IMG/VR virus record: IMGVR_UViG_3300040801_006093
Location: 1-28,783 of that record
Reading direction: 5' to 3' (one strand)
Length of the DNA: 28,783 nt
Source: a virus
Position 1 is the first letter of the stretch. The number at the start of each line of letters is the position of its first letter. Position numbers and translations under genes: made by a program. Positions 1 to 16,285 of this stretch are shown here, piece by piece. The notes beneath the pieces were generated by a model. It was not told where the DNA came from, did no database searches, and saw only the letters and a program-made list of their open reading frames with translations.

Positions 1-3000
1 TCATCCACCAGCAGGAGGGTGATGGGTGGGCTGTTCTTCATCATCAAGCTCGTGCAGCGCGTGCCCAAGTTGCGTGAGGCAGGAGGATACGTCGTTCCAG
101 GCGCTCCTGACAGCCGCGCGTTCGAGGGCGCGCGCCTGGTCGGCCAGCCGAGACTGTCCAAAGGTCTCGGCATGGCCTTTCATCACATGGGCATGCGCGG
201 CCACCTGCGTTAGGTCGGCACGGGCCAGGGCATCTTCGGCGGCGGCCAACTGATCGCGCAGTTCCGTTTTCAACCGGGGGAACAGGCTTTTCAGGGACTC
301 CGGCGGGGCCTCCCGGGCCGGCGGTGGTGACTGTCCAAGGCTGGCAAGCACGGTGGCGCGCAACTGGTGTCGCGTGTAGGGTTTGGTCAGAAAGGCATCG
401 GCCCCGGCGGCCAGGGCCTGTTGGCGCACCTCGGGCCGGGTGTCGGCGGATTGAAAGACAATCGGCACTTTTGGGGGCACCCTTGGGGTGTCCCGCCGCG
501 CTTCCAGCGCCCGGATCGCCTTGAGGGCGGCCAGCCCGTCCATTTCCGGCACTTGCACGTCCATGAGCACGATATCTACCGGCTCGCCAGTCGCCAAAGC
601 CACCGCTTCGCGTCCGTTCCGACACGCGACCAGGGTGAGGGGAAGGCCCGCCAGGTGGTCGCGGATCACCTCCTGGTTCAGGTCCGAATCCTCGACGACC
701 AGAACCCGCGCGGGCTGGTCCGCGCTGACGGGGCGGATGTCGGCCATTGCCGGCGCCGCGCTGTCCGCATCCCGCACTGCCGTCGGACTGGACGGCGGGG
801 CATCGGCGCGGCCCGGCAGGGGCAGATCGACCAAGAAGGTGCTGCCGCGGCCTGGGGTGGAGTCGACCTGAATGCGCCCGCCCATGTGTCGCACCAGGCT
901 GGCGGTGATGGTAAGACCGAGTCCGAGACCCTGGCCGGTGGCGGCGGCCTCAGGTTTGATCTGGTGAAAGGGCTCGAAAATGCGGTCGAGCTGCTTTGCG
1001 TCGATCCCCGGCCCGGTGTCCGTGACGCAGATCCGCACGCCGTCGGCAAGAGGCGTGGCGCTGACTTCGATGAGACCGGTCTGGGTGAATTTCACGGCGT
1101 TGCCGATCAGGTTCACCAGACTCTGGTGGATGCGCCGATCATCGCCAAGGTGGAAATCGGGCAGCGCCGGTGCGATCCGCGTTTGCAGACTCAAGCCCTT
1201 GGCAGCGAGATCCCGGGCGAATAGTTCGGTGGTTCTTTCGATCAGGGCATCAAGGCTGAACCAGCGTTCTTGAACGGGACCGTCACCGATGTCGGTGCGT
1301 GCGAAGTCCAGCACGTTTTCGATCAGCGCACGCAGATGGGTGCTGGCGCGCTGCAGCAGGTCGATTCGCCGTCGGCTGGGGGCGGGAAGCGGGTCATCGG
1401 CCAGGGCCTCGGCCATGGCCAGGATGGCGTTCAGCGGGGTGCGCAGCTCGTGATTGACGGAGGCGATGAAGGTCGTGCGCGCCTTGGCCGCCTGCTCGGC
1501 CCTGCGATTGGCCTGCTGCAGGCGGAGATTCCACCACGCGAACAGGCCGATCAGTAACGCGGCGATCACTGCCGTGCGGACCAGAAGTTCGTAATCCGGC
1601 ACCTGCCGCACTTCCATCGCCAACCATCGATTCAGGATGCGGTTGATCTCGGCGCTCTGTGTGCCGTCCAGGACGGTCTGGATTATCCGATGCAACATGG
1701 GCTCGTCGGCGCGCACGGCCATCGCAAAATCTGCGTCCCAGGACAGGCGCCCCGAGACCTTGAGGTCCACCAGTTCCGCTTCGCGCATGATGTAGGCCAG
1801 ATCCGCCGTGGTGCCGATGTGCGCGAAGACCTCGCGCGTGCGCACTTTCTCCAGTCCGTCCCGAACGGTGTCCACGGGCTCAAGCTGGATTGTGGGATAG
1901 CGACGGCGCAACTCGGCCGCCAAGTCCGGGTCGGGGCCGAAGCTGAACCGCCGGTGCAGTTCGGTATTGAGGTCGGTGATGAAGAACTCTTCGGTGCGCG
2001 TGACCAGCACGTAGGGCAACTGGAATAACGGCTTGGTCAGGCGAAAGCCCGGTAGAGCCGCGGGGCTCGCATGGGTCAGCGCCAGCATGTCGCAGTCGGG
2101 CCAGATCCCGTTGGCTGCGCCGGGCGCCCGGGTGGCCAGCGGCATGGGTTCGACCGCAACCCCCAGGGAGTCCTGGAGAAGATCGACGAAATCGCCCGCC
2201 ATGCCGTCGATGCGCTCCCCGACGATGCGCGCAAAGGGCATCCAATCGGTCTCGGTGCAGAGGTGCAACGGGCCGCGCGCCTGAAGATAGTCCGCTTCTT
2301 CCTCGGTCAATGGAATCCGTCTGGACGTGGGCACCGGAAGCTGATCGCTCCCCTCCAGCCAGCGTTGGCGCAGGTCCATCTGCTCCTGGATCGAGATGGT
2401 TGCCAGCCCTTTGTTAAGGATGGAAGCCAATTCCGGCCAATCGCGGCGCACCTGAAAGACCAGTTCGTAGGGTTGGCCGACGGCAAATGCGGCCTCGATC
2501 AGACCGGCCAGGCCCAGTTGCCGGGCCACAAAAAAGGCCGTTTCGTCGAGGATGGTGAAATCCGCCTCGCGCGAAACGAGTGCAGTGATGGTTTCATCAA
2601 TTGTGTCAACATAGGTCCAATGCGACTCTGATGCGACCTGGCGCGCCATGTTTTCAAAATTAACATTATTGCGCTGCAAAATCAGACGCTTGCCCACCAG
2701 ATCCTGCGCGCTGTAGATATCCGCCGGGTTGCCCGAGCGGACGATCACCAGACCGGTCAATGAGACATACGGTGTAGTGGCGATGAAGAATTTCTCGCGA
2801 TCCTTATGGACCACCGCGGTCGCAAGCCCATCCAACGCGCGCATCCGCGCCCGTTGTTGAATCTCGCCCCAGACGCCCAGTTCGAAGCGGATGCGCAGAC
2901 CGGTGCGCGCCTCGATCAGGGCGGCGATTTCCGCGTCGTGTCCGGTGATTGCGCCGGACGGCTCCCGAAGGACGAAGGGAGCAAACGACAGACCGCTGCC

Positions 3001-3231
3001 GAACGTAACCTCGGGATGCCGGTCAAGAAACGCGCGTTCTTCTGCGGTGAATTCGATGGGATCGGAGTCGACGGGCTCGGAAGCAAACGCCGGGAGCGGC
3101 CCCGCCAGCAGCAACATCGCCAGGAGCAACATGACCGTCTGCAGGGTCGGCCTTGCCGCCCCTTTGGGGGGCCGCGTCCGTGGGCCGGGCAGTTGGATGC
3201 GATGACCCGGCGCTGCGATCATGCCGGGCAT
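1..3231 (-). CDS. BvgS/EvgS-type hybrid sensor histidine kinase
   Basis: Inner-membrane phosphorelay kinase of 1076 aa. Domains in order: signal/anchor helix about 33-50; two periplasmic solute-binding (SBP_bac_3-like) domains about 65-295 and 315-545; one TM helix about 551-567; HisKA with phospho-acceptor H594 in an NHELRTPL motif; HATPase_c with N-box near 707-715, G1 DTGPGID 738-744 and G2 GQGLGLGL 766-773; receiver domain about 841-965 with D891 and K950; Hpt domain with HVMKG at H1015. All phosphorelay residues are present, so it should be active. The tandem SBP architecture is that of BvgS and EvgS, which sense small molecules in the periplasm. The ligand cannot be told from sequence. 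It lies outside the phage genes and is probably host flank. No good ribosome site precedes the ATG at 3231, and an ATG nine bases further in is an alternative. The cognate response regulator is not in the window. Confidence 0.93.
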   Translation of the reverse strand: MPGMIAAPGHRIQLPGPRTRPPKGAARPTLQTVMLLLAMLLLAGPLPAFASEPVDSDPIEFTAEERAFLDRHPEVTFGSGLSFAPFVLREPSGAITGHDAEIAALIEARTGLRIRFELGVWGEIQQRARMRALDGLATAVVHKDREKFFIATTPYVSLTGLVIVRSGNPADIYSAQDLVGKRLILQRNNVNFENMARQVASESHWTYVDTIDETITALVSREADFTILDETAFFVARQLGLAGLIEAAFAVGQPYELVFQVRRDWPELASILNKGLATISIQEQMDLRQRWLEGSDQLPVPTSRRIPLTEEEADYLQARGPLHLCTETDWMPFARIVGERIDGMAGDFVDLLQDSLGVAVEPMPLATRAPGAANGIWPDCDMLALTHASPAALPGFRLTKPLFQLPYVLVTRTEEFFITDLNTELHRRFSFGPDPDLAAELRRRYPTIQLEPVDTVRDGLEKVRTREVFAHIGTTADLAYIMREAELVDLKVSGRLSWDADFAMAVRADEPMLHRIIQTVLDGTQSAEINRILNRWLAMEVRQVPDYELLVRTAVIAALLIGLFAWWNLRLQQANRRAEQAAKARTTFIASVNHELRTPLNAILAMAEALADDPLPAPSRRRIDLLQRASTHLRALIENVLDFARTDIGDGPVQERWFSLDALIERTTELFARDLAAKGLSLQTRIAPALPDFHLGDDRRIHQSLVNLIGNAVKFTQTGLIEVSATPLADGVRICVTDTGPGIDAKQLDRIFEPFHQIKPEAAATGQGLGLGLTITASLVRHMGGRIQVDSTPGRGSTFLVDLPLPGRADAPPSSPTAVRDADSAAPAMADIRPVSADQPARVLVVEDSDLNQEVIRDHLAGLPLTLVACRNGREAVALATGEPVDIVLMDVQVPEMDGLAALKAIRALEARRDTPRVPPKVPIVFQSADTRPEVRQQALAAGADAFLTKPYTRHQLRATVLASLGQSPPPAREAPPESLKSLFPRLKTELRDQLAAAEDALARADLTQVAAHAHVMKGHAETFGQSRLADQARALERAAVRSAWNDVSSCLTQLGHALHELDDEEQPTHHPPAGG

Positions 3232-3450: not shown

Positions 3451-3759
3451 CTAGGCGAAATCGAGCGCCCCTTTGAGTTCCGGCTCATCCCCCCTTTCAA
3501 AAACGGCTGCCCAGCGGTCAATCTGAGGCTGGAGCTCGGGAGCCTCGATCTGCATGTGGAACGTGTAGAGCCGATCAACGACCTCCTTCATCAACTCCCG
3601 CATCCGGGCATCGTCGATGTGCGAGACCTCTGGCCAAGGGATCTTCCGCCCCTCAGCATCCACCACCATCACGTCGGAATCGTCCCCCGTCTTGGTGACG
3701 GGGACCACGCTGGCGTGGATGTCCTCCAGCCTGGTGTTGCGCACACACATCATGGCCAT
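3451..3759 (-). CDS. Conserved hypothetical protein, 5' end disrupted by a tandem duplication
   Basis: Protein of 102 aa from the ATG at 3759, beginning MAMMCVRNTRLEDIHA and rich in acidic residues. It has no TM segment or catalytic motif that I recognise. It resembles small conserved alphaproteobacterial proteins of unknown function. The likely original start is the ATG at 3833, which opens MNRNDEERIAAKLAKVMAM. A 26-bp tandem duplication (3749-3800) then shifts the frame, and that upstream reading ends after 27 codons at a TGA overlapping the ATG at 3753. Removing one repeat unit restores a continuous 126-aa frame that runs into MMCVRN. The body may still be made by re-initiation at the ATGs at 3759, 3753 or 3750, which lie just after an AAGG sequence. 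Function unknown. Confidence 0.7.
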   Translation of the reverse strand: MAMMCVRNTRLEDIHASVVPVTKTGDDSDVMVVDAEGRKIPWPEVSHIDDARMRELMKEVVDRLYTFHMQIEAPELQPQIDRWAAVFERGDEPELKGALDFA

Positions 3760-3800
3760 GACCTTGGCAAGCTTGTCATGGCCATGACCTTGGCAAGCTT
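3749..3800. repeat. 26-bp perfect-phase tandem duplication
   Basis: Positions 3749-3774 and 3775-3800 are head-to-tail copies identical at 25 of 26 bases (core TCATGGCCATGACCTTGGCA). The unit length is not a multiple of three, so the duplication shifts the frame of the minus-strand gene it lies in. It looks recent, and either slippage or recombination could collapse it. Confidence 0.95.
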
Positions 3801-3890
3801 GGCGGCGATACGCTCTTCATCGTTCCGGTTCATGCCGCGAGCGTACCGTCATCCTTTGCCGCACGCCACGGATTTGAATCCGAGCCCACA

Positions 3891-4154
3891 TCACCGCCAG
3901 CCATGCAAGCACCCCCTTGCCTGCTCCCGCATGACGGCGTAGTCGCTGAGCATCTCCACCAGCGCCGACCCCTCCGGCAGCAGGTTCAGGTCCTCGGCCG
4001 CGCGGGCCTGGACGTCGCGGCTGTACTCGACCACAGGCGGGCACACGGCCGGCTCGCCCGCGTCAGAACCGGCTGTCGCGCAGGCGCTCAGCCAGATCGT
4101 GGCGATCACGGGGACGGCGAGCCGCCGCCTCCAGCATCCGGCGTTGGGCGTCAT
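3891..4154 (-). CDS. Rz1-like outer-membrane spanin lipoprotein
   Basis: Small lipoprotein of 87 aa. A basic N-terminus (CWRRR) and hydrophobic stretch end in an LSAC lipobox with the lipidated cysteine at residue 25, followed by a soluble part of about 60 aa. Its start lies inside the preceding Rz-like gene in another frame (overlap 4063-4154), which is the typical overlapping arrangement of phage i-spanin and o-spanin genes. With its partner it would fuse inner and outer membranes as the last step of lysis. The C-terminal part, with a DYAVMREQARGC stretch, matches small proteins often found at the end of alphaproteobacterial prophage lysis cassettes. It lacks the proline-rich region of lambda Rz1, so the assignment rests on lipobox and context. 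Confidence 0.7.
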   Translation of the reverse strand: MTPNAGCWRRRLAVPVIATIWLSACATAGSDAGEPAVCPPVVEYSRDVQARAAEDLNLLPEGSALVEMLSDYAVMREQARGCLHGWR

Positions 4155-4302
4155 GGGCCTTCTCCATCATTTCCAGGCGTTCGGCGAGACGCCCGGCGCG
4201 GCGGGCACCGAGCAGCACCGCCAGAACGGCGGTCACCACAGCCAGGGCGCGCCCGAGCGCCAGCCCGGACCCGCCCAGCCATCGGCTCAGCATCGCGACC
4301 AT
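4063..4302 (-). CDS. Rz-like inner-membrane spanin
   Basis: Protein of 79 aa from the ATG at 4302. It has one N-terminal TM helix (about residues 14-32, LALGRALAVVTAVLAVLL) and then a charged, heptad-like helix (AERLEMMEKAHDAQRRMLEAA) to the C-terminus, the usual plan of an i-spanin: membrane anchor plus periplasmic coiled coil. The ATG overlaps the endolysin stop as ATGA, so the two are translationally coupled. The Rz1-like lipoprotein gene starts inside it. A longer in-frame start at 4386 would lie inside the endolysin gene and gives a low-complexity shadow peptide, so I prefer 4302. A small holin is an alternative reading, but the coiled coil and nested lipoprotein favour a spanin. Confidence 0.68.
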   Translation of the reverse strand: MVAMLSRWLGGSGLALGRALAVVTAVLAVLLGARRAGRLAERLEMMEKAHDAQRRMLEAAARRPRDRHDLAERLRDSRF

Positions 4303-4979
4303 CACCGCAGACCCCGCCGCCGGTCGTCGATGCGCGCCCAGACCATGACGCCGATGCTGATCAGGGTGACGGCCAGCAGGGCCCACTTCGCTGCATCCAG
4401 GGTAAGGGCCAGATCCCCCAGAACCTCCTGCGCGGGCCCGAGTCCGTCCTGGAGGGCGCCCACCACAGCCGTGCCGACGGTGGCGGCGGCCGCCGCCTGC
4501 CCACCCCGCACCGTGCGGGAGCGGGTCAGCGGCTTTTCAGGGGGCAGCACACCGGCGCGCACCAGGGCGGCGTCGATCTGAGCCTCGGTATAGGGCTGGC
4601 AGCCGTTCTCCATGGTGACCATGGCCGTCAGCACGGGCCGCAGATGGTCGGCGCGGTGGAAGTCCAAAGCCTGATCCGGGCCGAAGCCGCTCTGCCGAGC
4701 CACGAAGGCGACGTAGCCGTTGGTGTCGTTCTCGGACGGCGGCGCCCACAGGGCGATCAGCCGGCGGATCGTGGTCGCATCGCGGCGGTCATGGTGGTTG
4801 ATGATCAGCACCGCCCCGGCCCGCAAGCCCCAGACCGGATCCCGGAACTGCTCGAAGGCGCCGTCGGTGTTGTCGGCCGGGTCGATCCGGCCCTGCCAGC
4901 GGTTGGCGGGGTTCAGGCGGATGTTGAGCGGATTGTGGTTGCGGATGCCGCGCGGCATCCGGGTGGGGTCAGCGGTCAT
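4302..4979 (-). CDS. Endolysin (lysozyme-like) with C-terminal membrane segment
   Basis: Peptidoglycan hydrolase of 225 aa. The N-terminus carries PRGIRNHNPLNIR (residues 9-21) and FEQFRDPVWGLRAGA (about 42-56), the signature of the phage 'structural protein P5'-type lysozyme-like family. The lysozyme-like domain covers about residues 9-145. An Ala/Gly-rich stretch (about 158-172) and a TM helix near 192-208 follow, ending in a basic tail (RIDDRRRG), so the enzyme is probably membrane-tethered. I chose the ATG at 4979, which overlaps the preceding gene by 11 bp; the alternative start at 5018 adds a low-complexity extension. It overlaps the i-spanin gene by ATGA. The membrane tail could tie enzyme release to loss of membrane potential, which is an inference. 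Confidence 0.8.
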   Translation of the reverse strand: MTADPTRMPRGIRNHNPLNIRLNPANRWQGRIDPADNTDGAFEQFRDPVWGLRAGAVLIINHHDRRDATTIRRLIALWAPPSENDTNGYVAFVARQSGFGPDQALDFHRADHLRPVLTAMVTMENGCQPYTEAQIDAALVRAGVLPPEKPLTRSRTVRGGQAAAAATVGTAVVGALQDGLGPAQEVLGDLALTLDAAKWALLAVTLISIGVMVWARIDDRRRGLR

Positions 4980-5253
4980 GGCGGGCGTCCTCCCCGTCGT
5001 GCCCGTACCGGCCCTCAATAACCCGGTCGAGCTTGGTTTCGATCTTGAGCAGATGCGCGGTCAGGCGCGCCTCCACCTCCTTGAGGTGACCGATCGAGGC
5101 GTAGGTGGTGGCGACGTGCAGCTTGAAGGCGGACAGTTCGGCATGCAGGGCCTCGACCTGGCGCTCCCGGGTGGCACGCCCGGTGATGAGCATCCAGAAC
5201 AGCCCGGCCAGGACCGGCACCTCGATGACGGTGATCCACCATTGCAGTTCCAT
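4969..5253 (-). CDS. Small one-TM phage protein with coiled coil (holin candidate)
   Basis: Protein of 94 aa with an N-terminal TM helix (about residues 5-21, WWITVIEVPVLAGLFWML), then a long amphipathic helix (RERQVEALHAELSAFKLHV through LKIETKLDRVIEGR) and an acidic/His-rich tail. The ATG at 5253 has a strong GGGAGG ribosome site eight bases upstream; a longer start at 5334 lies in the previous gene. It resembles the small TM-plus-coil proteins next to phage endolysins (DUF2730-like in layout). Candidate roles are holin, antiholin or endolysin regulator. No classical two- or three-TM holin is present, so this is the best holin candidate in the cassette. Function inferred from context. Confidence 0.6.
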   Translation of the reverse strand: MELQWWITVIEVPVLAGLFWMLITGRATRERQVEALHAELSAFKLHVATTYASIGHLKEVEARLTAHLLKIETKLDRVIEGRYGHDGEDARHDR

Positions 5254-5257
5254 GGGC

Positions 5258-5500
5258 TCACCCTCCCGATGCGGACGCCGCCCGCCCGCGCCGCCGCTGG
5301 GGCGGCGCGGTGGCGGTTTCGGCCGGCGGAGCAACGGCGCGCTCCGGTTCCGGCGGCGGTGGCTTGGGGGCCGGGGCCAGCGGCACCGCCGCCCCGGTCT
5401 CGATCAGGGCCGCGCCCAGGGTGGGCGTGACCGTGACGACCTCGCCGGCCCCGGCGGAGACCTCGGGACCGGCGATGGTGGTGATCATGCGCAGTCTCAT
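5258..5500 (-). CDS. Small conserved phage protein with proline-rich tail
   Basis: Protein of 80 aa. The N-terminal half (MRLRMITTIAGPEV, then GEVVTVTPTLGAALIETGAA) is the short beta-domain typical of small phage proteins encoded near capsid and head-fibre genes. The C-terminal half is low-complexity Pro/Ala/Arg, ending in a basic RRRGRAAS patch. I chose the ATG at 5500, with GTGAGG six bases upstream. A GTG at 5512 overlaps the stop of the previous gene and is an alternative. Role unknown; a minor virion or assembly protein is likely from position. Confidence 0.6.
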   Translation of the reverse strand: MRLRMITTIAGPEVSAGAGEVVTVTPTLGAALIETGAAVPLAPAPKPPPPEPERAVAPPAETATAPPQRRRGRAASASGG

Positions 5501-5508
5501 GTTGGGCC

Positions 5509-5739
5509 TCACGCGCTGGCCACGATGCCGACGGCGCGCAGCGCCGCCAGCACGGCATTGAGGGCGGCGCGGGCCTCGGCATCGGTGGTGGTGCCGCCGG
5601 TTGCGTCAGCGATGGCGGTGGCCGGGGCGCCGGTTGGGCCAACGATGTGGCCCCCCGTGTTGACCTGGATGACGCCGCCGACCTCGATGACCAGGCGGTC
5701 GCCGTCCCGGTCGCGGTAGACCTGGGTGACGTGGCTCAT
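5509..5739 (-). CDS. Head-fibre-like capsid decoration protein
   Basis: Protein of 76 aa. The first 30 residues form a short beta segment (MSHVTQVYRDRDGDRLVIEV). The rest contains AIADATGGTTTDAEARAALN and then NAVLAALRAVGIV, the 'AIADA-x-GGTT-x-DAEARAAINA' motif of phage head-fibre and fibre-base proteins (head fibre of phi29 type and related tail-fibre N-termini). It has a strong AGGAGG ribosome site seven bases before the ATG at 5739 and lies just after the capsid/decoration genes. It probably forms trimeric spikes on the head. The same motif also occurs at the base of tail-associated fibres, so this is the only gene with even a possible tail connection. Confidence 0.7.
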   Translation of the reverse strand: MSHVTQVYRDRDGDRLVIEVGGVIQVNTGGHIVGPTGAPATAIADATGGTTTDAEARAALNAVLAALRAVGIVASA

Positions 5740-5750
5740 ATCGCGTCCTC

Positions 5751-6191
5751 CTAAGCCGTGCCCTCGGCGGGCGAGACGTGGGTTTCGAGGCCGGCGACGG
5801 TGTCGCCCTGGGTGGTGGGCAGCACGCGGGTGCCGTACTGGATGGCGATCACGCCATCGATGACGGCATCGGCCGTGCCCCGGGTGACGACCGCGCGGAC
5901 GTAGCGTTTGGCCGGGCGGACCAGATCCACCACCAGCAACCCGTTGTCGTCGGTGTGGGCGATGGCCTGGGCGGTGCCGGCCAGATCGGCCGCGTCGGTA
6001 AGCGTGGGGTCGTCCCCCTGCTGGACTTTCAGACCGGTCACGGCATCGTCGCCGAGGGTGCCGAAGGCGGCGATGAACACGACGCCCTCGGCATTCGCCA
6101 TATCGATCACCGTTGCCTCCTGGTCGGTCTGACCGGCGGCGACGGCGTCCATGACACGGGTGATGGTCACGGTGCGGGCAAGGTTGGGCAT
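5751..6191 (-). CDS. Phage virion decoration/structural protein
   Basis: Protein of 146 aa, mostly beta-strand by composition (MPNLARTVTITRVMDAV, then VVFIAAFGTLGDDAVTGLKV). It lies 12 bp after the major capsid gene and has a GGAG ribosome site. Small beta-rich proteins of this length directly after HK97-type capsid genes are usually decoration or cement proteins, and similar ones occur in alphaproteobacterial prophages. No enzymatic motifs are seen. The assignment as decoration protein is from position and composition only. Confidence 0.65.
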   Translation of the reverse strand: MPNLARTVTITRVMDAVAAGQTDQEATVIDMANAEGVVFIAAFGTLGDDAVTGLKVQQGDDPTLTDAADLAGTAQAIAHTDDNGLLVVDLVRPAKRYVRAVVTRGTADAVIDGVIAIQYGTRVLPTTQGDTVAGLETHVSPAEGTA

Positions 6192-6203
6192 GGTCTCGTC
6201 TCC

Positions 6204-7445
6204 TCAGGCCAGCGTGACGCGGACGAAGGCTTCCTCCAGGACCGGCGCGCCGTCGGTCTCCAGACGGCCGATGAAGCCGACCTGATTGGTCTCGGCGTAC
6301 AGTTCGTTGAGGCGCTGCACCTGCATGGAGAGCGCATCCACGATCCAGTAGTGCTGGAAATCGCCGAGCAGGCCGACGTAGAGGCCGGTGGTGAAGGTGT
6401 TGGGCGCCCATTCGGACAGGGTCATGGGCAGGCCAAGCAGGGTGTCGGGCTCGCCCTCGCGCACGGACTGGCGCCAGATGTACTGGCCCTCGCCGTCCTT
6501 CAGCTTGGTGATCTGCTTGACGGCGTCGCGGTGGAAGATCCAGCGCGCACGCGGCCAGTACTGGCCCTTGAGCGCGAACTTGGCCTCGATCAGGCCGTCG
6601 AAGCGGATCTCGGTGGCGGTGTTGCCGGTGGCCACGTCGCGGCTGGTGGAGATGCCGTTGTCCGAGGCGGTGAACACGCCCAGCGGCCGGCCGGCGCCGG
6701 AGCCGGTCAGGAAGGCCTTTTCCTGGGTGACCGCGAACTTGTACGCCAGCCGCCCCATGACCAGGGCCTCGGGGCCGATCAGGGCCTGACGCAGAAGCTG
6801 CTGGCTGACCTTGATGCGCTTGGCCAGGGGATGGGGGCGCAGTTCGCGCTTGCCCAATTTCATGGCCGTATCCTCGCCGCCGGTGGCCAGCTCGGTGGTC
6901 CAGTCGGCATCGGCCGGGTCGGCGTCCAGGGACGGCGCGCCGAGGGAGGCGGCCTGGGGCACCTGGAAGGTTCGGGCCAGACCGCGCATGACCACCTGAT
7001 CGTCGACCGCCTTGATCAACTCGGTGACGAACTGCTGGGGCGGGACCAGATAGCCGCCGTCCACATCGGCGCCGGCCTGCAGGGCGCGCAGTTCCTCGCC
7101 GGCCAGGGCACCGGTCCCTCCGCGCAGGAAGCGGGCGAAGGCGGTACGGTAGGCACCATCGGCCCGGGGGTCGGCGCGATCCTCGCGGCTTTCCGGCGCG
7201 GGATGGTCGGGAGCCTGCTCGCTGCGGGCGGCCTCCTCGGCCATGCGGCGGTCGAGGGCCTGCTGGCGCTCCTCGCGGCTGATCTGCTCGCCCAGGCGCT
7301 CCTGGTCGGCGAACAGGGCGTCATAGCGTTCCTGCTCCTCGGCCGTCAGGTCGCGGCCCTCGCCGCCGGCGGCATCGAGCAGGCCACGCATGTCGGTGAC
7401 GATGCGACCGCGCTTCTCGCGCAGATCCTTGAGACGGGTGCTCAT
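6204..7445 (-). CDS. Major capsid protein, HK97 family
   Basis: Protein of 413 aa from the ATG at 7445, which has an AAGGA ribosome site five bases upstream. The first 100 or so residues are charged and helical (LKDLREKRGRIVTDMRGLL, then LTAEEQERYDALFADQERL), the scaffold-like delta domain removed by the prohead protease. The rest is the HK97 fold, with the E-loop/P-domain region following GGYLVPPQQFVTELIKAV and the C-terminal LLGLPMTLSEWAPN and GLYVGLLGDFQHYWIVDAL segments typical of HK97 capsids. It forms the icosahedral head shell. The longer start at 7490 lies across a terminator hairpin and is unlikely. A strong terminator lies just upstream (7480-7518). Confidence 0.95.
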   Translation of the reverse strand: MSTRLKDLREKRGRIVTDMRGLLDAAGGEGRDLTAEEQERYDALFADQERLGEQISREERQQALDRRMAEEAARSEQAPDHPAPESREDRADPRADGAYRTAFARFLRGGTGALAGEELRALQAGADVDGGYLVPPQQFVTELIKAVDDQVVMRGLARTFQVPQAASLGAPSLDADPADADWTTELATGGEDTAMKLGKRELRPHPLAKRIKVSQQLLRQALIGPEALVMGRLAYKFAVTQEKAFLTGSGAGRPLGVFTASDNGISTSRDVATGNTATEIRFDGLIEAKFALKGQYWPRARWIFHRDAVKQITKLKDGEGQYIWRQSVREGEPDTLLGLPMTLSEWAPNTFTTGLYVGLLGDFQHYWIVDALSMQVQRLNELYAETNQVGFIGRLETDGAPVLEEAFVRVTLA

Positions 7446-7479
7446 GGCGTTCCTTTCGTGTGGCTGGAGGCCGGCCAGC

Positions 7480-7518
7480 AAAAAGCCCACCCCCCGCGCC
7501 GGCCGGGCGGAGGTGGGC
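7480..7518 (-). terminator. Rho-independent terminator inside the head operon
   Basis: On the minus strand, arms GCCCACC (7512-7518) and GGTGGGC (7485-7491) pair perfectly around a GC-rich loop that can itself fold. Five T residues (7480-7484) follow. This is a textbook intrinsic terminator between the protease and capsid genes, pointing along the operon. Confidence 0.75.
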
Positions 7519-7554
7519 AGTGAGAACGGGCGGAAGGGGTGAGACGGAGAGGCG

Positions 7555-8136
7555 CTACGGCCCCATGGCCAGCGCCAGGTCCAGGCATCGCCGCAACAGG
7601 GCCACCGGCGGCCGGGGCGTGGCGGCGGCCCGCCAGGCGGTCATGGCCCGCACCGCCACGGCGGTGTCAGGATAGGCGGGGAAGACCACCGGCGAGACAT
7701 CGAGCAGACGCACGGCCGTCAGGGTGCGCAGGACGCGCCCCTCGGCATCCTTCTCCCAGGTCTGGCCGCCGGGGCCGACGATGAAGCCGAAGCTCATCTG
7801 GCTGACATCGCCGCGTCCGATGGAGACCATGAGGTCGCGGGCCGCCTGGGTGTCGGGCGGGTCGATCTCTATGGCCAGCCCCTCGGCATCCTCGCCCAGG
7901 CGCAGGGTGCCGGCGCGGTTGCGCCCCAGGATCACGTTGGGGTCATGATTGAACAGGGCGCGCACGTCGTCCCGCTCCAGGCTGGCGGCGAAGGCGCCGG
8001 GGCGGATGCGCTCGCGGAAGCCCCCCAAATCCTCCGACAGCCGGTCGAACAGGGCCGCGTGTCCGACGATGCGGGGCGCATCCCCGGCTTCAAGGCGCAG
8101 GTCGGTCGCCCCCGCGATGCGTCGCTCAAGATCCAC
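7555..8136 (-). CDS. HK97-family prohead protease
   Basis: Serine protease of 193 aa that cleaves the capsid delta domain and scaffold during maturation. Family features: RRIAGATDLR start region, VGHAALFDRLSEDLGGFRE (24-42), RIRPGAF, catalytic histidine in LFNHDPNVILGR (H64), catalytic serine in SQMSFGF (S115), and the conserved LLDVSPVVFPAYPDT near the C-terminus. I chose a GTG start at 8136 because a GGAGGA ribosome site lies seven bases upstream. It overlaps the portal gene by 11 bp. An ATG at 8178 would extend it inside the portal gene without a clear site. Order portal-protease-capsid is standard for HK97-type phages. Confidence 0.92.
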   Translation of the reverse strand: MDLERRIAGATDLRLEAGDAPRIVGHAALFDRLSEDLGGFRERIRPGAFAASLERDDVRALFNHDPNVILGRNRAGTLRLGEDAEGLAIEIDPPDTQAARDLMVSIGRGDVSQMSFGFIVGPGGQTWEKDAEGRVLRTLTAVRLLDVSPVVFPAYPDTAVAVRAMTAWRAAATPRPPVALLRRCLDLALAMGP

Positions 8137-9394
8137 CGTCAGCTCCTCCCGATTGCCGGGCGATCTCGCCCACGGCATTGGCCAGCTGTTCGGCCGGCGT
8201 CATGTTGACCGGCGCCAGATACAGGTCGCCGCCGTCGATACGGTTCATGTCCTCGCGTTCGCGCACGTCGTTGGCCGAGAGCCAGCCCCACTGGCGGCCG
8301 GTGGCATAGGCGCGGTAGCGGCTTTCGATGTCGCCGCGCAACAGGCCGTCCAGATTGAACGCCACCATGTGGGTGCGGCGCATGTCCTCGGTGAACAGGT
8401 CGCGGGTCAGCGCCTGCTCCCAAACAACCGCCCAGGGGCGGATGGTGTCGGTGACCACCTCGATCGCCTGATGCTCGATGTTGGAGAACGTGGCCCGCTC
8501 CAGATCGCCGATCTTGTGGGGCGGCACACCGAAGATGGCGGCGATCTCGCTGCGCTGGAACTTGCGGGTCTCCAGGAACTGCGCCTGTTCGGCGGTCATG
8601 CCGATGGGCACGATGTCCATGCCCTCTTCCAGGACGGCGGTCTTGTGGGCGTTGGCGGTGCCGGCGTACTGACTGTTCCAGGCCTCCTTCAGGCGCCGGC
8701 CGGCGTCCGGGGAGAGGCGGCCAGGATGCTTGATCACCATGCCGGGGCGGGCGTTGTTGCGGTAGAACCGCGCCCCGTAGGCCTCGGCGGCCAGGGCGAG
8801 GCCGACCGCCTCGCGCATGGCGTCGATGGGCGAGAGCCCCAGCACGCCGTCGGCCGACAGGCTGAGCCCGCGCAGGTGCAGGACCTCCTCCTGCAGCAGG
8901 ATCTCGCGACCGCGTCCCGCCTCGCACGGCCAGTGCTCATAGGCCAGCCGGCCGTTGACGCGCCGCTCCAGCGGGCGCACCCGGTCGGGATGCAGCGGCA
9001 CCAGGGCGGTGACGGCGCCGCCGTTGGTGGCCAGGATGCGGGCATAGGCATTGCCGCGCAGGCAGAGGTGGGCCTGCAGCATGGCCCGGAACTCGAAGGC
9101 GGTCTGCCAGCCGTTGGGCTGGTCGTGCAGCAGGCGGCTGAGCGGATGATCGGGATCGCGCGCCTTGCCGCCATCGGACAGGCGCCGATGCAGGATCAGC
9201 GGCATGGCGGCCAGGGTGCGTGCCAGATACTGCACGCAGGCATAGACGGCGGTGGCGCGCATGGCGCTGTCGGGGGTGACCGTCATGCCGCTGGCGGCCT
9301 CGGTGGCCCCGAACAACCCGGCCAGCGCCGGATCGCGCGGCGCGTACGACCGCGCTTCGCCGCGCCCCATCAGGCGTCGCAACAAGCCCATCAT
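8126..9394 (-). CDS. Portal protein, HK97 family
   Basis: Dodecameric portal subunit of 422 aa that forms the DNA gate of the head. Typical features are AVYACVQYLARTLAAMPLIL near residues 49-68, HPLSRLLHDQPNGWQTAFEFR, LCLRGNAYARIL, the LHLRGLSLSADGVLGLSPI motif and FGVPPHKIGDLERATFSNIE, which define HK97/lambdoid portal (Phage_portal) proteins. Length is usual for the family. It starts at an ATG-ATG pair (9394/9391) with AAGGA seven bases upstream. It is followed by protease and capsid genes, but preceded by connector and head-closure genes, which is not the usual order. Confidence 0.95.
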   Translation of the reverse strand: MMGLLRRLMGRGEARSYAPRDPALAGLFGATEAASGMTVTPDSAMRATAVYACVQYLARTLAAMPLILHRRLSDGGKARDPDHPLSRLLHDQPNGWQTAFEFRAMLQAHLCLRGNAYARILATNGGAVTALVPLHPDRVRPLERRVNGRLAYEHWPCEAGRGREILLQEEVLHLRGLSLSADGVLGLSPIDAMREAVGLALAAEAYGARFYRNNARPGMVIKHPGRLSPDAGRRLKEAWNSQYAGTANAHKTAVLEEGMDIVPIGMTAEQAQFLETRKFQRSEIAAIFGVPPHKIGDLERATFSNIEHQAIEVVTDTIRPWAVVWEQALTRDLFTEDMRRTHMVAFNLDGLLRGDIESRYRAYATGRQWGWLSANDVREREDMNRIDGGDLYLAPVNMTPAEQLANAVGEIARQSGGADGGS

Positions 9395-9428
9395 GGCAAG
9401 GTCCTTTTCGGCCGGGTCGTGGCCGGGC

Positions 9429-10277
9429 TCATCGGCGGATCTGAACGTCCCAGGCGACCACCTCGGCCCCGACGTAAAGCGCGGTGACGGTCGTAACGCT
9501 CCAGTCCGTGCCGTCCAGGGTCACGGTGTCGGCGGTGGTGGGGGCGGTCTCCATGTCACCGCCGCGCACGATCAGGCGCCGGTCCCCTGCGGCCACGCCG
9601 CCCATGATCTCGCTGGCGGCGTAGTCGGCGATGGCCGCGCGCACGGTGCGGGTGGCGCTGGACCCGGCAGGGACGAACACCACGGTCTCGCCGCCGCTCA
9701 GAGCGCCGCTCAGAGCCGGCGTGATCGGGACGTTCAGGAACACCCACGCCATTCCATCGAGCGACTGGGCGACATCGGCCGTTGCGGTATAGGTCGCTCC
9801 GGCCACGCTGATCCCGTCGTCCGCGCGCACCCGCCCCGAGGACCATCCCGAGCAGACGATGGTCAGCGTGGTGGCGCCCGCCCCGGCGGCGCGCGCGGTA
9901 TAGGTCAGGCCCTCATCGGGCGGATCGTAGGACGACCCGCCGTCGCCGCTGCCGGGCGTGGTCCAGGTCACGTCCACGCCCCAGTCCGTGGTGATGGCCC
10001 ACAGCAGCCCCAGGGGATCGCCGGCCACCGGTTCGCCGGCGCGGATGGTGTGGCCGACACCGCCCAGGGTCAGCGTGCCGGCGGTGGGCGTGCCCACCTC
10101 GGCCCGGCGGACATGCCAGACGGAGCGGGCCACGGTGAGGGTGAGCGTGCCCAGGGTCAGCATCTCGGTGCCATCGACCGGCACCACCCGGCAGGCCACG
10201 GCCGGACCGCCGCCCTCGGGCAGCAGGGTGGCAGGCAGCCCCAGGCGCCGGAACGGACCCGCGAGGGATGGAGTCAT
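9429..10277 (-). CDS. Head-closure / head-tail joining protein, probably two-domain
   Basis: Protein of 282 aa, nearly all beta-structure. The C-terminal 75 residues (RAAIADYAASEIMGGVAAGD, then RRLIVRGGDM and TVTLDGTDWSVTTV) match the head-closure / head-tail joining pattern of a small barrel with 'G..V..GDR..iv....' and 'd.v.idG..w.V'. The N-terminal 100 residues contain a similar layout (VGTPTAGTLTLGGVGHTI), suggesting an internal duplication. About 90 residues of beta-rich sequence lie between them. A typical head-closure protein is about 100-120 aa, so this one is more than twice as long. The ATG at 10277 has a CCGGAG ribosome site eight bases upstream. It sits at the bottom of the portal, where a tail would attach. 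Confidence 0.6.
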   Translation of the reverse strand: MTPSLAGPFRRLGLPATLLPEGGGPAVACRVVPVDGTEMLTLGTLTLTVARSVWHVRRAEVGTPTAGTLTLGGVGHTIRAGEPVAGDPLGLLWAITTDWGVDVTWTTPGSGDGGSSYDPPDEGLTYTARAAGAGATTLTIVCSGWSSGRVRADDGISVAGATYTATADVAQSLDGMAWVFLNVPITPALSGALSGGETVVFVPAGSSATRTVRAAIADYAASEIMGGVAAGDRRLIVRGGDMETAPTTADTVTLDGTDWSVTTVTALYVGAEVVAWDVQIRR

Positions 10278-10310
10278 GATCGGTCTCCGGTCATTGCCGA
10301 GGAACGGTGG

Positions 10311-10928
10311 TCACACAACGGCGCCGCCGCGCCAGGGGGCCAGGGCGGTGAGCAGGCCCGCCTCCAGGGTGTCGGGCGCCCAGTAGCTCTCCTGGATCTC
10401 GCCGTAGCGCCAGCTGCGCAGGGCGTCGTCGCGGCCCCGGTCGTCGGCGGCCCGCCGCGCCAGCGTCAGACAGGCCTCGGCCAGCGCCGGGGGCACGTCG
10501 TCCGGATCCCACCCCACCGAGAGGTCGAGGGTCAGGCGGTCGCCCTCCCAGACGCAGGGACGCCCGGTCTCGGACAGCCGCCACAACAGCGCGGCCATGG
10601 GCTCGACCCGCCAATCGGTCTCGGCCAGGGCCGTCCCGTCCAGGGTGATGGCGGTGACCGTTCCGACCGGGATGCGCCAGGGCAGCAGCAGCGGCCCCGG
10701 GCCGGGCGCGATCCCCTCGACCTCGATCCGCGCCGTCTCGCGCAGGAAGGTGCGCCGTCCCGCCTGATCCGGGGCCACGTCGCACCACAGACAGACCGTC
10801 TCCGAAGCGGCCAGGAGCAAAGCCTCCGCCACGGTCGGATCCAGGTCGGGCCGCTCGGCCAGCAGGCGCGCGGTGGGCACCAGCAGGCGGGGCGCGGCCG
10901 GGGTCTCGACGATCAGGCGGGTGATCAT
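10311..10928 (-). CDS. Head-tail connector (gp6-like head completion protein)
   Basis: Protein of 205 aa. It has a helical N-terminal part, a middle beta segment (PWRIPVGTVTAITLDGTAL) and then VPPALAEACLTLARRAADDR and a C-terminal extension. The pattern LPWRIPVGTV-x-I, then 'vP..l..A.l.LaaR', matches the gp6-like / DUF3168-neighbour connector family (head-tail connector, first adaptor under the portal). The start overlaps the terminase stop as ATGA, so the two are coupled. In HK97-type phages this gene normally follows the capsid gene; here it precedes the portal. Confidence 0.72.
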   Translation of the reverse strand: MITRLIVETPAAPRLLVPTARLLAERPDLDPTVAEALLLAASETVCLWCDVAPDQAGRRTFLRETARIEVEGIAPGPGPLLLPWRIPVGTVTAITLDGTALAETDWRVEPMAALLWRLSETGRPCVWEGDRLTLDLSVGWDPDDVPPALAEACLTLARRAADDRGRDDALRSWRYGEIQESYWAPDTLEAGLLTALAPWRGGAVV

Positions 10929-12685
10929 AGGAAGACAAGCTCCTGGGTCTCGTAGATGGAGCGCCCCGGCACCCCGCCCTGCACGAGGGCGCGGCCGAGG
11001 GCGTTGACCAGCGCCGAGATGCCGTCGATGCGCTCGGCGGAACGCTCCTTGTCGGGCTTGATGTTGCCGGCCGGGTCCTGGCGCACGGCGACGTTGGACG
11101 CGTTCCAGCGCAGGACCGGGTGACCGCCGTGCCAGAAGGACCGCGAGACCACCAGCCGTTCCAGTTCAGCCGTGGGCGCGGCGAGCGACAGGAACCCCTG
11201 GCCGAACTCGATCAGGCTCAGCCCCTCCTGCTGCAGGGTCTGCACGATCTCCCCGGCGAAGGTGCGGTCGTAGGCCAACTCCCGCAGGTCGAAGCGCCCG
11301 GCCAGGGCCAGGATCTCGTGTTCGATGAAGGCGAAGTCGGTGGCGTTGCCGGGCGTAGCGACCAGGAAACCCTGGTCGCGCCAGACATCGTAGGGCACCC
11401 GGTCGCGCCTGGCCCGGCGCAGGATGTCGTCCTCGGGCACCCAGAACCGGCACACGGCGATCCATCTGGCGGCCAGCGGCCCCAGGTCGGGATCGCCCGT
11501 AGGCGGGAACAACAGCACGAAGGCCGACAGGTCGTTGACGCGGGCCAGGTCCAGGCCGCCGTAACAGGGCTGCCCGGCCAGCATCGCCTCCAGGTCGTCC
11601 AGATCCGCCTTGACGGCGGCGGCGTCGGTGGCGACCGGCGGGCCGCCGTCTTCCCAGACCGCCATGTCGAGCCAGCGGGTGACCTGCTCGGTCCATTCGT
11701 TCAGGCGCAGGCGGCGGATCGCGTTCTGCTGCGCCGGCATCTCGCGCGCCTCCTCGATCTGGCGGCGCAGGTCGTCTTCCTTGACGGTCACCCCGAGGCT
11801 GGGGTTGGCCTTGATCCAGACGCCGGGATCGGTCCAGTCGTCGCCGTCGTCCAGGGTGGCGATGAAGGCGAACCAGCTGTCGGCGGCCTCCGGCGGGACG
11901 GAGCCTTCCAGCGCCTTGACCGAGAACTCGTGGTGCTGGCGGCAGACCGAATGCCGGTCGTGACCGGCGGTGGTGATCTCGAAGATCAGCGGCTGGCGCC
12001 GCGCGCCGGTGGCGGTGTTGAGCTTCTGGATGATCTCCGCGTTGGGGTGTTCGTGGACCTCGTCGACGGCGGCGAAGTGGACGTTGAGGCCGTCCATCTT
12101 GGAGGCGTCGGCGGACAGCGGCCGGAACCAGGAGGCGGTCGCCGTGACCGCGAGGTTGTTGACGGTGCGCGTCACGCGGGAGCGCAGGGCCGGACTGGCG
12201 TCGACCATGCGCTCGGCCTCGCCGAAGACGATGCGGGCTTGATCGCGGGTGGTGGCGGCGGCGTAGACGTGGCTGCCCGGTTCGCCGTCGGCGACCAGGG
12301 CGTAGAGCGCGGTGCCGGCCAGCAGCACAGACTTGCCGTTCTTGCGGGCCACCTCGACGTAGGCGGTGCGGAAGCGCCGCAGCCCGTCCGCCCGCTTCCA
12401 GCCGAACAGCGAGCCGACGACGAAGGCCTGCCAGGGCTGCAAGGTGAAGGGCTGGTGCGCCCACTCCCCGGTGGAGTGGCGCAGGTGGCCGAAGAAGTCG
12501 AGCGCGTGCCGGGCGGCCGAGGCGTCCCACACCAGCCCGCGCGCCGCCCCCGTCGCAAGATCGGCGAGATGGCGGCGGCAGGCCAGCGTGACCAGACGCC
12601 CAGCCACCACCTTCCCCTCGACCACGGCGCGGGCGTAGGCCTCGACCGGACACGCCGTCGTCTTGGCTTTACGCGTCCTTGCCAC
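10925..12685 (-). CDS. terL: Terminase large subunit (Terminase_1 family)
   Basis: Packaging motor and nuclease of 586 aa. The ATPase domain has a Walker A-like VARKNGKSV (112-120), Walker B VHFAAVDEVHEH (202-213, D208/E209) and coupling motif FEITTAG (235-241). The C-terminal RNase H-fold nuclease has acidic residues in GGLDLARVNDLSAF, ELAYDRTFAGE and ERIDGISA. Length and motifs fit the HK97-type Terminase_1 family, partner of P27-type small subunits. Start is GTG at 12685, overlapping the small subunit by 17 bp, with GAGGAG upstream. The HNH nuclease at 15953-16285 is consistent with cos-type packaging as in HK97, where TerL works with HNH protein gp74. Confidence 0.95.
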   Translation of the reverse strand: MARTRKAKTTACPVEAYARAVVEGKVVAGRLVTLACRRHLADLATGAARGLVWDASAARHALDFFGHLRHSTGEWAHQPFTLQPWQAFVVGSLFGWKRADGLRRFRTAYVEVARKNGKSVLLAGTALYALVADGEPGSHVYAAATTRDQARIVFGEAERMVDASPALRSRVTRTVNNLAVTATASWFRPLSADASKMDGLNVHFAAVDEVHEHPNAEIIQKLNTATGARRQPLIFEITTAGHDRHSVCRQHHEFSVKALEGSVPPEAADSWFAFIATLDDGDDWTDPGVWIKANPSLGVTVKEDDLRRQIEEAREMPAQQNAIRRLRLNEWTEQVTRWLDMAVWEDGGPPVATDAAAVKADLDDLEAMLAGQPCYGGLDLARVNDLSAFVLLFPPTGDPDLGPLAARWIAVCRFWVPEDDILRRARRDRVPYDVWRDQGFLVATPGNATDFAFIEHEILALAGRFDLRELAYDRTFAGEIVQTLQQEGLSLIEFGQGFLSLAAPTAELERLVVSRSFWHGGHPVLRWNASNVAVRQDPAGNIKPDKERSAERIDGISALVNALGRALVQGGVPGRSIYETQELVFL

Positions 12686-13139
12686 GGCTCAGGTACTCCT
12701 CGAACGGATCGACGGTATCGGCCGGTTCGGCCATGCGGATGCGCGAGCGCGAGGATGGTGTCATCCCGAACTCACTCTCGATCTGCGCCATCTGGGCCAG
12801 ACACTTGTTGGCGACGGCCAGGAACGGGTTCTGAATGATGTTGCCGGCCTCGGTCTTGACGACAGGGCCGCGCCGCTTGACCTCGGCCTCGGCGTCGATC
12901 CAGCGGCACCAGACGACGGCGTAGCGGGCCAGGGCGCCGGCATCGAGCTCGGTCATCACGCCGTGGCGGGCGAGCATCTCGGCCATGGCCACGAACTGGT
13001 CCCGGGCCCGGTCCTCCAGATGGTCCGGGGCCTCGGGGACGGCGACGGTGGGCCGGGGCTCGTCCTTGTTCAGGCGATGCGGCCGGGCCGTTCCCTTGAC
13101 CAGCTTGAGTTGGGTGGGCAGCGGCTTGCGGCCAGCCAT
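12669..13139 (-). CDS. terS: Terminase small subunit, P27 family
   Basis: DNA-recognition subunit of the packaging terminase, 156 aa. Family signature: MAGRKPLPTQLKLVKGTARP at the N-terminus, VPEAPDHLEDRARDQFVAMA, then ARYAVVWCRWIDAE and VKTEAGNIIQNPFLAVANKC, all typical of P27-type (Terminase_4) small subunits. It has AAGGAG nine bases before the ATG at 13139. It is the first gene of the head operon and diverges from the plus-strand trio, so the 186 bp between them probably hold promoters for both. Confidence 0.93.
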   Translation of the reverse strand: MAGRKPLPTQLKLVKGTARPHRLNKDEPRPTVAVPEAPDHLEDRARDQFVAMAEMLARHGVMTELDAGALARYAVVWCRWIDAEAEVKRRGPVVKTEAGNIIQNPFLAVANKCLAQMAQIESEFGMTPSSRSRIRMAEPADTVDPFEEYLSRGKDA

Positions 13140-13890: not shown

Positions 13891-14466
13891 ATGACCCAGA
13901 TCGACCTGTCCGAAACCCAGCGCACCATCCTGGGCACCGCCTGCGCCCGCGAGGACCGCATGATCTTCCCCGTCACCGCGCCCATCACGGGCGGCGCGGT
14001 CGGCAACGTCCTCAAGAGCCTGCTCAAGCGCGGGCTGATCGAGGAAATCGTCGCCGAGGACGAGACCACGGTCTGGCGCCACGACGAGGACCTTGGCCCG
14101 ATCACCCTGCGCGCCACCGACACGGGTCTGGCGGCCCTGGGCGACCGCGCGCCCACGGCGCCCCTGGGGCGCGACCACGACCAAGCCGGAACGGACATGC
14201 CAGCCGACGAGACCGACGCACACACGGCGCCCGCTGGCGCCCCGCGCCGGGTCCGGGGCAACACGAAGCAGGCCATCGTGGTCGACATGCTGCGCCGGCC
14301 CGAGGGCGCCACCATTGCCGAACTGGTGGAAGCCACTGGATGGCAATCGCACACGGTCCGGGGTTGCTTCGCCGGCGCGCTCAAAAAGAAACTTGGCCTG
14401 AGCATCATCTCGGTCAAGCACGAGCAGCGAGGCCGGATCTACAGCATCGTCCCCGACGAGGCCTGA
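13891..14466 (+). CDS. DUF3489-type HTH protein
   Basis: Protein of 191 aa, third gene of the plus-strand trio. The N-terminal part (MTQIDLSETQRTILGTACAR, then GGAVGNVLKSLLKRGLIEEI) and the C-terminal winged-helix part (NTKQAIVVDMLRRPEGATIA, ELVEATGWQSHTVRGCFAGA, then LKKKLGL and GRIYSI) match DUF3489, a family of two-domain HTH proteins common in alphaproteobacterial mobile DNA. A low-complexity acidic linker joins the halves (about 98-125). It probably binds DNA. GGAGAC lies seven bases before the ATG at 13891; a longer start at 13840 has no site. It could control the trio or the divergent terminase operon (inference). Confidence 0.8.
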   Translation: MTQIDLSETQRTILGTACAREDRMIFPVTAPITGGAVGNVLKSLLKRGLIEEIVAEDETTVWRHDEDLGPITLRATDTGLAALGDRAPTAPLGRDHDQAGTDMPADETDAHTAPAGAPRRVRGNTKQAIVVDMLRRPEGATIAELVEATGWQSHTVRGCFAGALKKKLGLSIISVKHEQRGRIYSIVPDEA

Positions 14467-15952: not shown

Positions 15953-16285
15953 CTACGGGGGCGGTCGGAGCGGGTTGCCGAAGCCGCCGTCGCGGGCGGC
16001 GGTCTTGCGCCCATGGCACGACGCGCACAGCGCCTGCCAGCGGCTGCGATCCCAGAACACCGTGAGATCGCCTCGGTGCGGAACGATGTGATCGACCACG
16101 GTCGCGGGCACCCCGCACACGGCGCAGACCGGATGCTCCGCCAGGAACGCGCGCCGCGCCCGCTTCCACGCCGCCGTGCGGGTCGGGCGAACCCGGCTCT
16201 GGTCGCGGTAGGTCAGGTAATCCCGATCCCGTGCCGCCTTGTCCCGCCAGCCCTTGGGCCGATGCACCGGCGGCCTGATCGGCAT
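15953..16285 (-). CDS. HNH endonuclease
   Basis: Protein of 110 aa. It has a basic N-terminus and a typical HNH zinc nuclease fold: CAVC (C54/C57), VVDHIVPHRGD with catalytic H66, and CASCHGRKT (C87/C90/H91). Small HNH proteins beside terminase genes assist cos cleavage in HK97-type phages, and that is the most likely role here. It is the first gene after the early/late terminator. The ATG at 16285 has a GGGGGA site. The methyltransferase 93 bp downstream could form a pair with it, but HNH proteins of this type are usually packaging factors. Confidence 0.88.
   Translation of the reverse strand: MPIRPPVHRPKGWRDKAARDRDYLTYRDQSRVRPTRTAAWKRARRAFLAEHPVCAVCGVPATVVDHIVPHRGDLTVFWDRSRWQALCASCHGRKTAARDGGFGNPLRPPP

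What the first reader, a model, noticed from the sequence alone, without database searches (positions are those of the whole stretch)
3891..13139. Complete phage head and packaging set without any tail genes
TerS, TerL, connector, head closure, portal, protease, capsid, decoration, head-fibre and lysis genes are all present and tightly packed, yet no tail tube, sheath, tape-measure, assembly chaperone, baseplate or fibre gene is seen between head and lysis genes or anywhere in the window. Connector and closure genes also precede the portal, an atypical order. Known parallels are capsid-forming satellites (cf-PICIs), which make heads and borrow tails from helper phages, but those do not usually carry lysis genes. 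Other explanations: tail module located elsewhere, a tailless or short-tailed virion, a GTA-like particle, or deletion of the tail module.
Basis: partly seen in the sequence, partly recalled or inferred. Interest (0 to 1): 0.85.

Follow-up and report, generated by a model that had tools for sequence, protein, structure and literature searches.

The report
Tailless prophage that likely borrows tails
This is a prophage-like element of purple and related bacteria that carries its own replication, head, DNA-packaging and cell-bursting genes but no tail, belongs to a family of dozens of equally tailless elements, and carries a tail-docking protein whose only close relatives sit beside the tail genes of ordinary phages, one of them in the same genome, so it probably fills its own heads and fits them with another phage's tails.

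Summary
3891-13139 encodes TerS, TerL, adaptor, stopper, portal, protease, capsid, three small head-linked proteins and a lysis cassette, with no tail gene in the window. A 95%-identical copy in Roseospira visakhapatnamensis lies on a 52-kb contig whose flanks hold BREX defence, integrase and conjugation genes, and no tail. This is not a one-off deletion. In 47 IMG/VR contigs carrying the related neck gene (>=77% identity), none has a tail gene between neck and lysis; 35 go straight into one of three alternative lysis cassettes. The window element has exchanged its head for that of a tailed siphophage lineage (capsid 60% identical to a tailed phage, 27% to its own family), yet no tail came with it. 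Its genes are under purifying selection. Mechanistic clue: the 282-aa stopper has only two other full-length relatives found, both directly beside the same type of siphophage tail module; one is a complete resident prophage in the Roseospira genome. Best explanation: a tail-borrowing temperate element that works like a capsid-forming satellite (cf-PICI) but is about twice the size and keeps its own replication and lysis genes. Tail borrowing itself is inferred, not shown. New variant of a known kind.

The parts
1..3231 (-). sensor histidine kinase (SBP_bac_3, HisKA, HATPase, receiver, Hpt): probable host chromosome at the element's left flank
   Evidence: Pfam; no near match as a unit in R. 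visakhapatnamensis
3451..3759 (-). small protein, probable element cargo; N-terminus disrupted by a 26-bp tandem duplication at 3750-3801
   Evidence: 60% identical to a 120-aa protein next to the lysis genes in L198; TRF
3891..4154 (-). 87-aa lipoprotein, Rz1-like outer-membrane spanin candidate (lysis)
   Evidence: phrog_26778 (unknown) E 8e-25; lipobox and position
4063..4302 (-). 79-aa one-TM protein, Rz-like inner-membrane spanin candidate (lysis)
   Evidence: phrog_27122; weak phrog_1026 Rz-like spanin E 0.002
4302..4979 (-). 225-aa endolysin-like protein with C-terminal TM
   Evidence: phrog_873 endolysin E 1e-52; dN/dS 0.07
4969..5253 (-). 94-aa one-TM protein, holin/regulator candidate
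   Evidence: phrog_29007 (unknown)
5258..5500 (-). 80-aa head-linked protein (DUF7302-like)
   Evidence: weak phrog_748 connector; homologue between capsid and neck in tailed phage G002
5509..5739 (-). 76-aa protein of unknown function following the head genes
   Evidence: phrog_12102 (unknown); a 79-aa ORF at the same place in G002
5751..6191 (-). 146-aa head-linked protein (decoration candidate)
   Evidence: phrog_5707 E 4e-11; homologue after capsid in tailed G002
6204..7445 (-). major capsid protein (HK97 family)
   Evidence: PF05065 E 4e-57; 60% to tailed phage G002, 27% to tailless G010
7555..8136 (-). head maturation protease
   Evidence: 65% to protease of tailed phage G002
8126..9394 (-). 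portal
   Evidence: PF04860 E 2e-119
9429..10277 (-). 282-aa stopper / tail-attachment protein, two FII-like domains around a beta domain
   Evidence: Phage_attach 1e-13; 45% over 264 aa to neck protein of resident siphoprophage C32; Foldseek top hits lambda neck, R4C stopper
10311..10928 (-). 205-aa head-tail adaptor
   Evidence: phrog_442 E 7e-17
10925..12685 (-). terminase large subunit
   Evidence: Pfam; 70-82% relatives
12669..13139 (-). terminase small subunit (P27 family)
   Evidence: Pfam
13891..14466 (+). DUF3489 regulator, opposite strand, conserved next to terS
   Evidence: conserved in relatives
14531..15859 (-). ParB-N6/N4 DNA methyltransferase, conserved family member
   Evidence: Pfam
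15953..16267 (-). HNH endonuclease
   Evidence: PF01844
17187..17738 (-). RuvC-like protein, conserved in the family and in prophage C32; the functional name is a guess, no Pfam match
18140..20431 (-). AAA_25 replication protein
   Evidence: PF13481
20428..21195 (-). PD-(D/E)XK nuclease
   Evidence: PF12705
21615..23293 (-). DEAD/ResIII helicase, frameshifted near 22211-22217 relative to the Roseospira copy
   Evidence: tblastn
23307..23936 (-). SSB-like protein of the replication block (name by position; no Pfam match)
23953..24828 (-). AAA_24 ATPase of the replication block
   Evidence: PF13479
25975..26781 (-). sigma-70 region 4 protein, probable regulator
   Evidence: PF08281
27209..28783 (-). 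large unknown protein cut by the window end; in relatives (G015) followed by the serine-recombinase cassette

Best explanation
A temperate, tail-borrowing element. Shown by sequence: it encodes its own replication block, terminase, HK97-type head, neck (adaptor plus stopper) and lysis cassette, and no tail; this architecture is conserved in a large family. Inferred: on induction it replicates, builds and fills its own heads with its own terminase, closes them with a stopper ring built from the 282-aa protein, and tails made by a co-resident or co-infecting siphophage of the C32 type dock onto that ring; the element's own endolysin and spanins release the chimeric particles. The stopper looks taken over from such a helper while portal and capsid come from elsewhere, which would match the element's heads to that helper's tails.
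For: No tail in the window or around the 95%-identical copy in R. visakhapatnamensis. 47 contigs with the family's neck gene, none with a tail gene between neck and lysis; 35 run straight from neck into lysis genes. Head exchanged as a block (capsid 60% to tailed G002, 27% to tailless G010) without gaining a tail. Head, neck and lysis genes all under purifying selection, dN/dS 0.06-0.33. The 282-aa stopper: 45% over 264 aa (E 2e-53) to the neck protein of the complete siphoprophage C32 in the same genome; full-length relatives in only 2 of 317 genomes of the order, the other (G224) again directly followed by a C32-type tail terminator, tube (63% to C32) and tape measure; a scan of 2.9 million viral contigs returned only C32 and the tailless element; one weak hit in 50,697 phage records. 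Predicted fold matches lambda FII and siphophage stoppers.
Against: No particle, packaging or transfer experiment. The link to a helper rests on one protein at 45% identity in one genome; for the larger clades (neck PF05521, 115 or 106 aa) no tailed phage with a closely matching neck was found. Own replication and lysis genes are more than known satellites need. The window's host genome is not held, so a resident helper there could not be checked. Foldseek E-values are marginal (best 0.019) although probabilities are 1.0; the model is of medium confidence (pLDDT 74).
Confidence: 0.62

Rival explanations
1. Cryptic prophage family: tails were lost by deletion and the remainder persists as non-mobile remnants, perhaps kept for lysis, defence cargo or superinfection exclusion.
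For: Tailed relatives with the same TerS/TerL module exist (G013, G014, G129), so a tail was probably lost; some members have gaps or frameshifts (window helicase; truncated methylase in C30).
Against: Dozens of members with intact, co-linear head, neck and lysis genes; dN/dS well below 1 for capsid, portal, stopper, terminase and lysis genes; wholesale head replacement and a stopper matching a resident phage are not expected of decaying DNA.
Confidence: 0.16
2. Two-part system: tails come from a tail locus kept in the host chromosome (tailocin-like cluster) rather than from a phage.
For: R. visakhapatnamensis has a contractile tail-plus-lysis cluster with no head, C25 43669-56025.
Against: The stopper matches the siphophage C32, not C25; C25 looks like an ordinary tailocin; no such locus could be tied to other members.
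Confidence: 0.1
3. A virus that works without a tail, or with a very short one made from the neck proteins.
For: No tail genes at all and a complete lysis cassette.
Against: Stopper and adaptor are of the long-tail (siphophage) kind; no needle, nozzle, fibre or receptor-binding gene was seen; no membrane or fusion proteins.
Confidence: 0.07
4. A gene-transfer-agent-like particle packaging host DNA.
For: Stopper fold resembles the RcGTA neck among others.
Against: Known GTAs keep their own tails; this family has integrase cassettes, replication genes and its own terminase, like a mobile element.
Confidence: 0.03

Closest known systems
[quoted passage not shown]
   Same: Encode TerS, TerL, HNH, portal, protease, HK97 capsid and head-tail connectors, no tail; depend on a helper for tails (PMC10690885). 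A cf-PICI-like element sits in the same Roseospira genome (C2:114311-127151).
   Different: About 25-28 kb against an average of 14 kb (PMC10803314); own lysis cassette; large replication block; capsid closer to tailed siphophages (60%) than to the local cf-PICI-like element (29%); Alphaproteobacterial host, not in the host list of PMC10803314.
Streptomyces satellites MulchRoom and MiniFlayer
   Same: Satellites with own capsid and packaging genes and, in MulchRoom, tails thought to be helper-encoded (PMC10690885).
   Different: They lack key replication genes and parasitise virulent phages; homology not tested here.
Tailed siphophage relatives (G013, G014, G129; G002 for the head)
   Same: TerL 70-82% identical, with the same neighbouring genes (G013/G014/G129); capsid and protease 60-65% (G002).
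   Different: They have full or partial siphophage tail modules after the neck.

Membership tests
cf-PICI | own capsid, protease, portal, connectors, TerS and TerL | tested here: met
cf-PICI | HNH endonuclease in the packaging region | tested here: met
   HNH at 15953-16267, upstream of the methyltransferase and terS
cf-PICI | no tail genes | tested here: met
cf-PICI | AlpA/HTH regulator and Stl-like repressor with an integrase | tested here: inconclusive
   Roseospira copy has HTH_17, HTH_3 plus IrrE-type genes and a tyrosine integrase beyond BREX; window shows none before it ends
cf-PICI | small size, about 14 kb on average | tested here: not met
   about 25-28 kb backbone (typical size from PMC10803314)
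cf-PICI | no lysis cassette of its own | tested here: not met
   lysis genes follow the neck in 35 of 47 contigs; that cf-PICIs lack them is general knowledge, not checked in the founding paper (not held)
cf-PICI | capsid within the cf-PICI capsid clades | tested here: inconclusive
   pairwise only: 29% to local cf-PICI-like element, 60% to tailed G002; no reference cf-PICI tree available
cf-PICI | mobilised in particles with helper tails | not testable with these tools
   needs induction experiments
Gene transfer agent | own head and tail genes, no replication or integration genes | tested here: not met
   no tail; replication block in window, integrase cassettes in relatives

The most novel reading that the evidence does not exclude
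A widespread class of temperate 'headed but tailless' phages in Alphaproteobacteria and probably beyond that are autonomous in replication, packaging and lysis and depend on other phages only for tails, adapting to a helper by swapping in that helper's stopper protein.
Probability: 0.5. Interest if true: 0.82.

Novelty: new variant of a known kind. Interest (0 to 1): 0.72.

Why it matters
Tail borrowing is known from cf-PICIs, which are small islands. Here the same dependence appears in a near-complete phage with its own replication and lysis, in dozens of isolate and metagenome contigs, intermediate between phage and satellite. It would show that losing only the tail can be a stable strategy, that stopper exchange may decide which tails are used, and it makes head-tail compatibility testable in a culturable, harmless host (R. 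visakhapatnamensis JA131) that also carries a cf-PICI-like element and the candidate helper.

Tried and rejected
Tail gene hidden among the small proteins: the 146- and 80-aa proteins have homologues between capsid and neck in tailed G002, which has separate tail genes; the lysis-block position is kept in relatives. Contig truncation: excluded by the 52-kb Roseospira contig, 47-kb G011 and several contigs that run on into host or defence genes. AlphaFold of the 146-aa protein was too poor to use (pLDDT 51). TerL tree: clades I and II hold only tailless or undecided members, but the order of branching against tailed lineages is unresolved, so one or several tail losses cannot be told apart. Named phages and PLSDB plasmids: no TerL above 60%. 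Literature searches found no description of such a family, but only open-access papers are held and the founding cf-PICI paper was not available. Helper for the other clades: not found. Empty site for the window's left flank in Roseospira: not found.
Full report
What is there. The window is an IMG/VR provirus record. Positions 1-3231 are a bacterial sensor kinase; everything from about 3.4 kb to the right end is phage-like and almost all on the minus strand. Read in transcription order: a large unknown protein cut by the window end, sigma-like regulator, replication block (AAA_24 ATPase, SSB-like, helicase, DUF6511, PD-(D/E)XK nuclease, AAA_25 protein, RuvC-like), DUF6362, HNH, ParB-methyltransferase, TerS, TerL, 205-aa adaptor, 282-aa stopper, portal, protease, capsid, three small proteins of 146, 76 and 80 aa, then a lysis block of 94 aa, 225-aa endolysin, 79 aa and an 87-aa lipoprotein. 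No tail tube, sheath, tape measure, baseplate or fibre gene is present.

Is the tail just outside the window? A copy 95% identical at the DNA level lies in Roseospira visakhapatnamensis JA131, Rhodospirillales. Its whole 52,463-base contig was read: beyond the lysis genes come a BREX system (BrxF, BrxC, PglX, BrxH, PglZ) and a tyrosine integrase; beyond the replication end come an HTH_17 protein, an IrrE-type/XRE regulator pair and, by reading of their translations, conjugation genes. No tail occurs on this contig.

Is it a deletion? TerL relatives at 70-82% identity were collected and their records fetched. Most share the same backbone and end: TerS, TerL, portal, ClpP-type protease, capsid, 128-146-aa protein, adaptor, head-completion protein, then lysis. 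Scans with two of these neck proteins brought 47 contigs with neck identity of 77% or more; 35 continue directly into lysis genes, of three interchangeable kinds (225-aa endolysin type with spanins; GH19-like endolysin plus holin; a muramidase), the other 12 into host or defence genes or the contig end; none has a tail gene between neck and lysis. Tailed relatives do exist: G013 and G014 (metagenomes) and G129 (a genome of the same order) share TerS/TerL and neighbouring genes but continue into tail genes. Taillessness is thus most simply derived, but it is stable, not a local deletion. The TerL tree puts tailless elements in two large groups plus the window/Roseospira pair; the branching order against the tailed lineages is unresolved.

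The window pair is special. Its capsid is 60% identical to that of G002, a tailed siphophage, 71% to L003, but only 27% to the rest of the tailless family; the protease shows the same. So the head module was exchanged as a block. In L003, which has this head type (portal 79%), TerL is followed directly by the portal, without adaptor and stopper in between, so the placing of the adaptor-stopper pair there looks specific to the Roseospira lineage. Between the window and the Roseospira copy all head, neck, packaging and lysis genes evolve under purifying selection, dN/dS 0.06-0.33.

The stopper. The 282-aa protein consists of two Phage_attach/FII-like domains around a beta domain; the best structural matches are the lambda neck and the stopper of siphophage R4C, with marginal E-values and probability 1.0. 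In 50,697 named phages there is one weak match. In the Roseospira genome itself, the complete siphoprophage on contig C32 (integrase, replication, head, tail tube, tape measure, lysis) has a 309-aa neck protein 45% identical over 264 residues. Among 317 genomes of the order only one other full-length relative exists, in G224, again closely followed by a C32-type tail terminator, tube (63% identical to C32) and tape measure. A scan of all viral contigs with the C32 protein returned only C32 and the tailless element. The family is thus tied to one tail type in both tailed instances, and the third instance is the tailless element. The simplest reading is that the element carries the docking piece for that tail. 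This is an inference from homology; nothing here shows assembly.

Comparison with what is known. cf-PICIs encode heads and packaging and take only tails from helpers (PMC10690885), average about 14 kb (PMC10803314), and can use tails of phages not resident in the same strain (PMC11389934 notes 17 resident prophages that did not mobilise EcCIEDL933). The present family works on the same principle if the inference is right, but fails two tests of membership: size and possession of a lysis cassette; its capsid is also nearer to tailed phages than to the cf-PICI-like element in the same genome. I therefore describe it as a new variant: tail-dependent but otherwise nearly complete temperate phages.

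Limits. Gene calls come from a simple codon model of my own, checked against ORF lists and profile searches; small genes may be mis-started. The SSB and RuvC names are positional or by similarity, without a Pfam hit. The negative searches for helpers are limited by the need for exact 8-residue words. Host names are known only for Roseospira. The window's helicase carries a frameshift, so this particular copy may not be fully functional.

Noticed in passing
L020:2990-17034 (R. visakhapatnamensis C30): Complete BREX-type defence cassette (WYL, BrxF, BrxC, PD-T7-3-like, PglXI, BrxHI, PglZ) between the lysis end of the tailless element and a tyrosine integrase; L225 has an 80%-identical integrase beyond other large genes in the same relative place.
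   Followed up: partly
L023/L024 (G003 C2:114311-127151): A cf-PICI-like element in an alphaproteobacterium: integrase, DUF927 primase, portal, fused protease-capsid, HNH, adaptor, head-completion protein, TerS, TerL, no tail.
   Followed up: partly
L171/L172 (G003 C25:43669-56025): Contractile tail genes plus lysis genes without a head between ordinary chromosomal genes: tailocin-like.
   Followed up: no
window 22211-22217: Frameshift splitting the helicase relative to the 560-aa Roseospira copy.
   Followed up: partly
window 3750-3801: Perfect 26-bp tandem duplication that disrupts the start of the 3451-3759 ORF; an intact 120-aa homologue lies next to lysis genes in L198.
   Followed up: partly
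L187:12108-15706: Next to a tailless element's lysis genes, an IS3-type insertion and then a single gpD-like tail gene, holin and lysozyme: possible relic of a tail or of another prophage.
   Followed up: no
L198:9544-9837, L195:11972-12259, L127:1472-1753: A 93-97-aa ORF after the lysis genes in three members with no PHROG match, perhaps the end of a fibre-like protein.
   Followed up: no
window 3262-3355: Intergenic stretch with about 80% matches at two places in the Roseospira genome (C33, C36): dispersed repeat of unknown nature.
   Followed up: no
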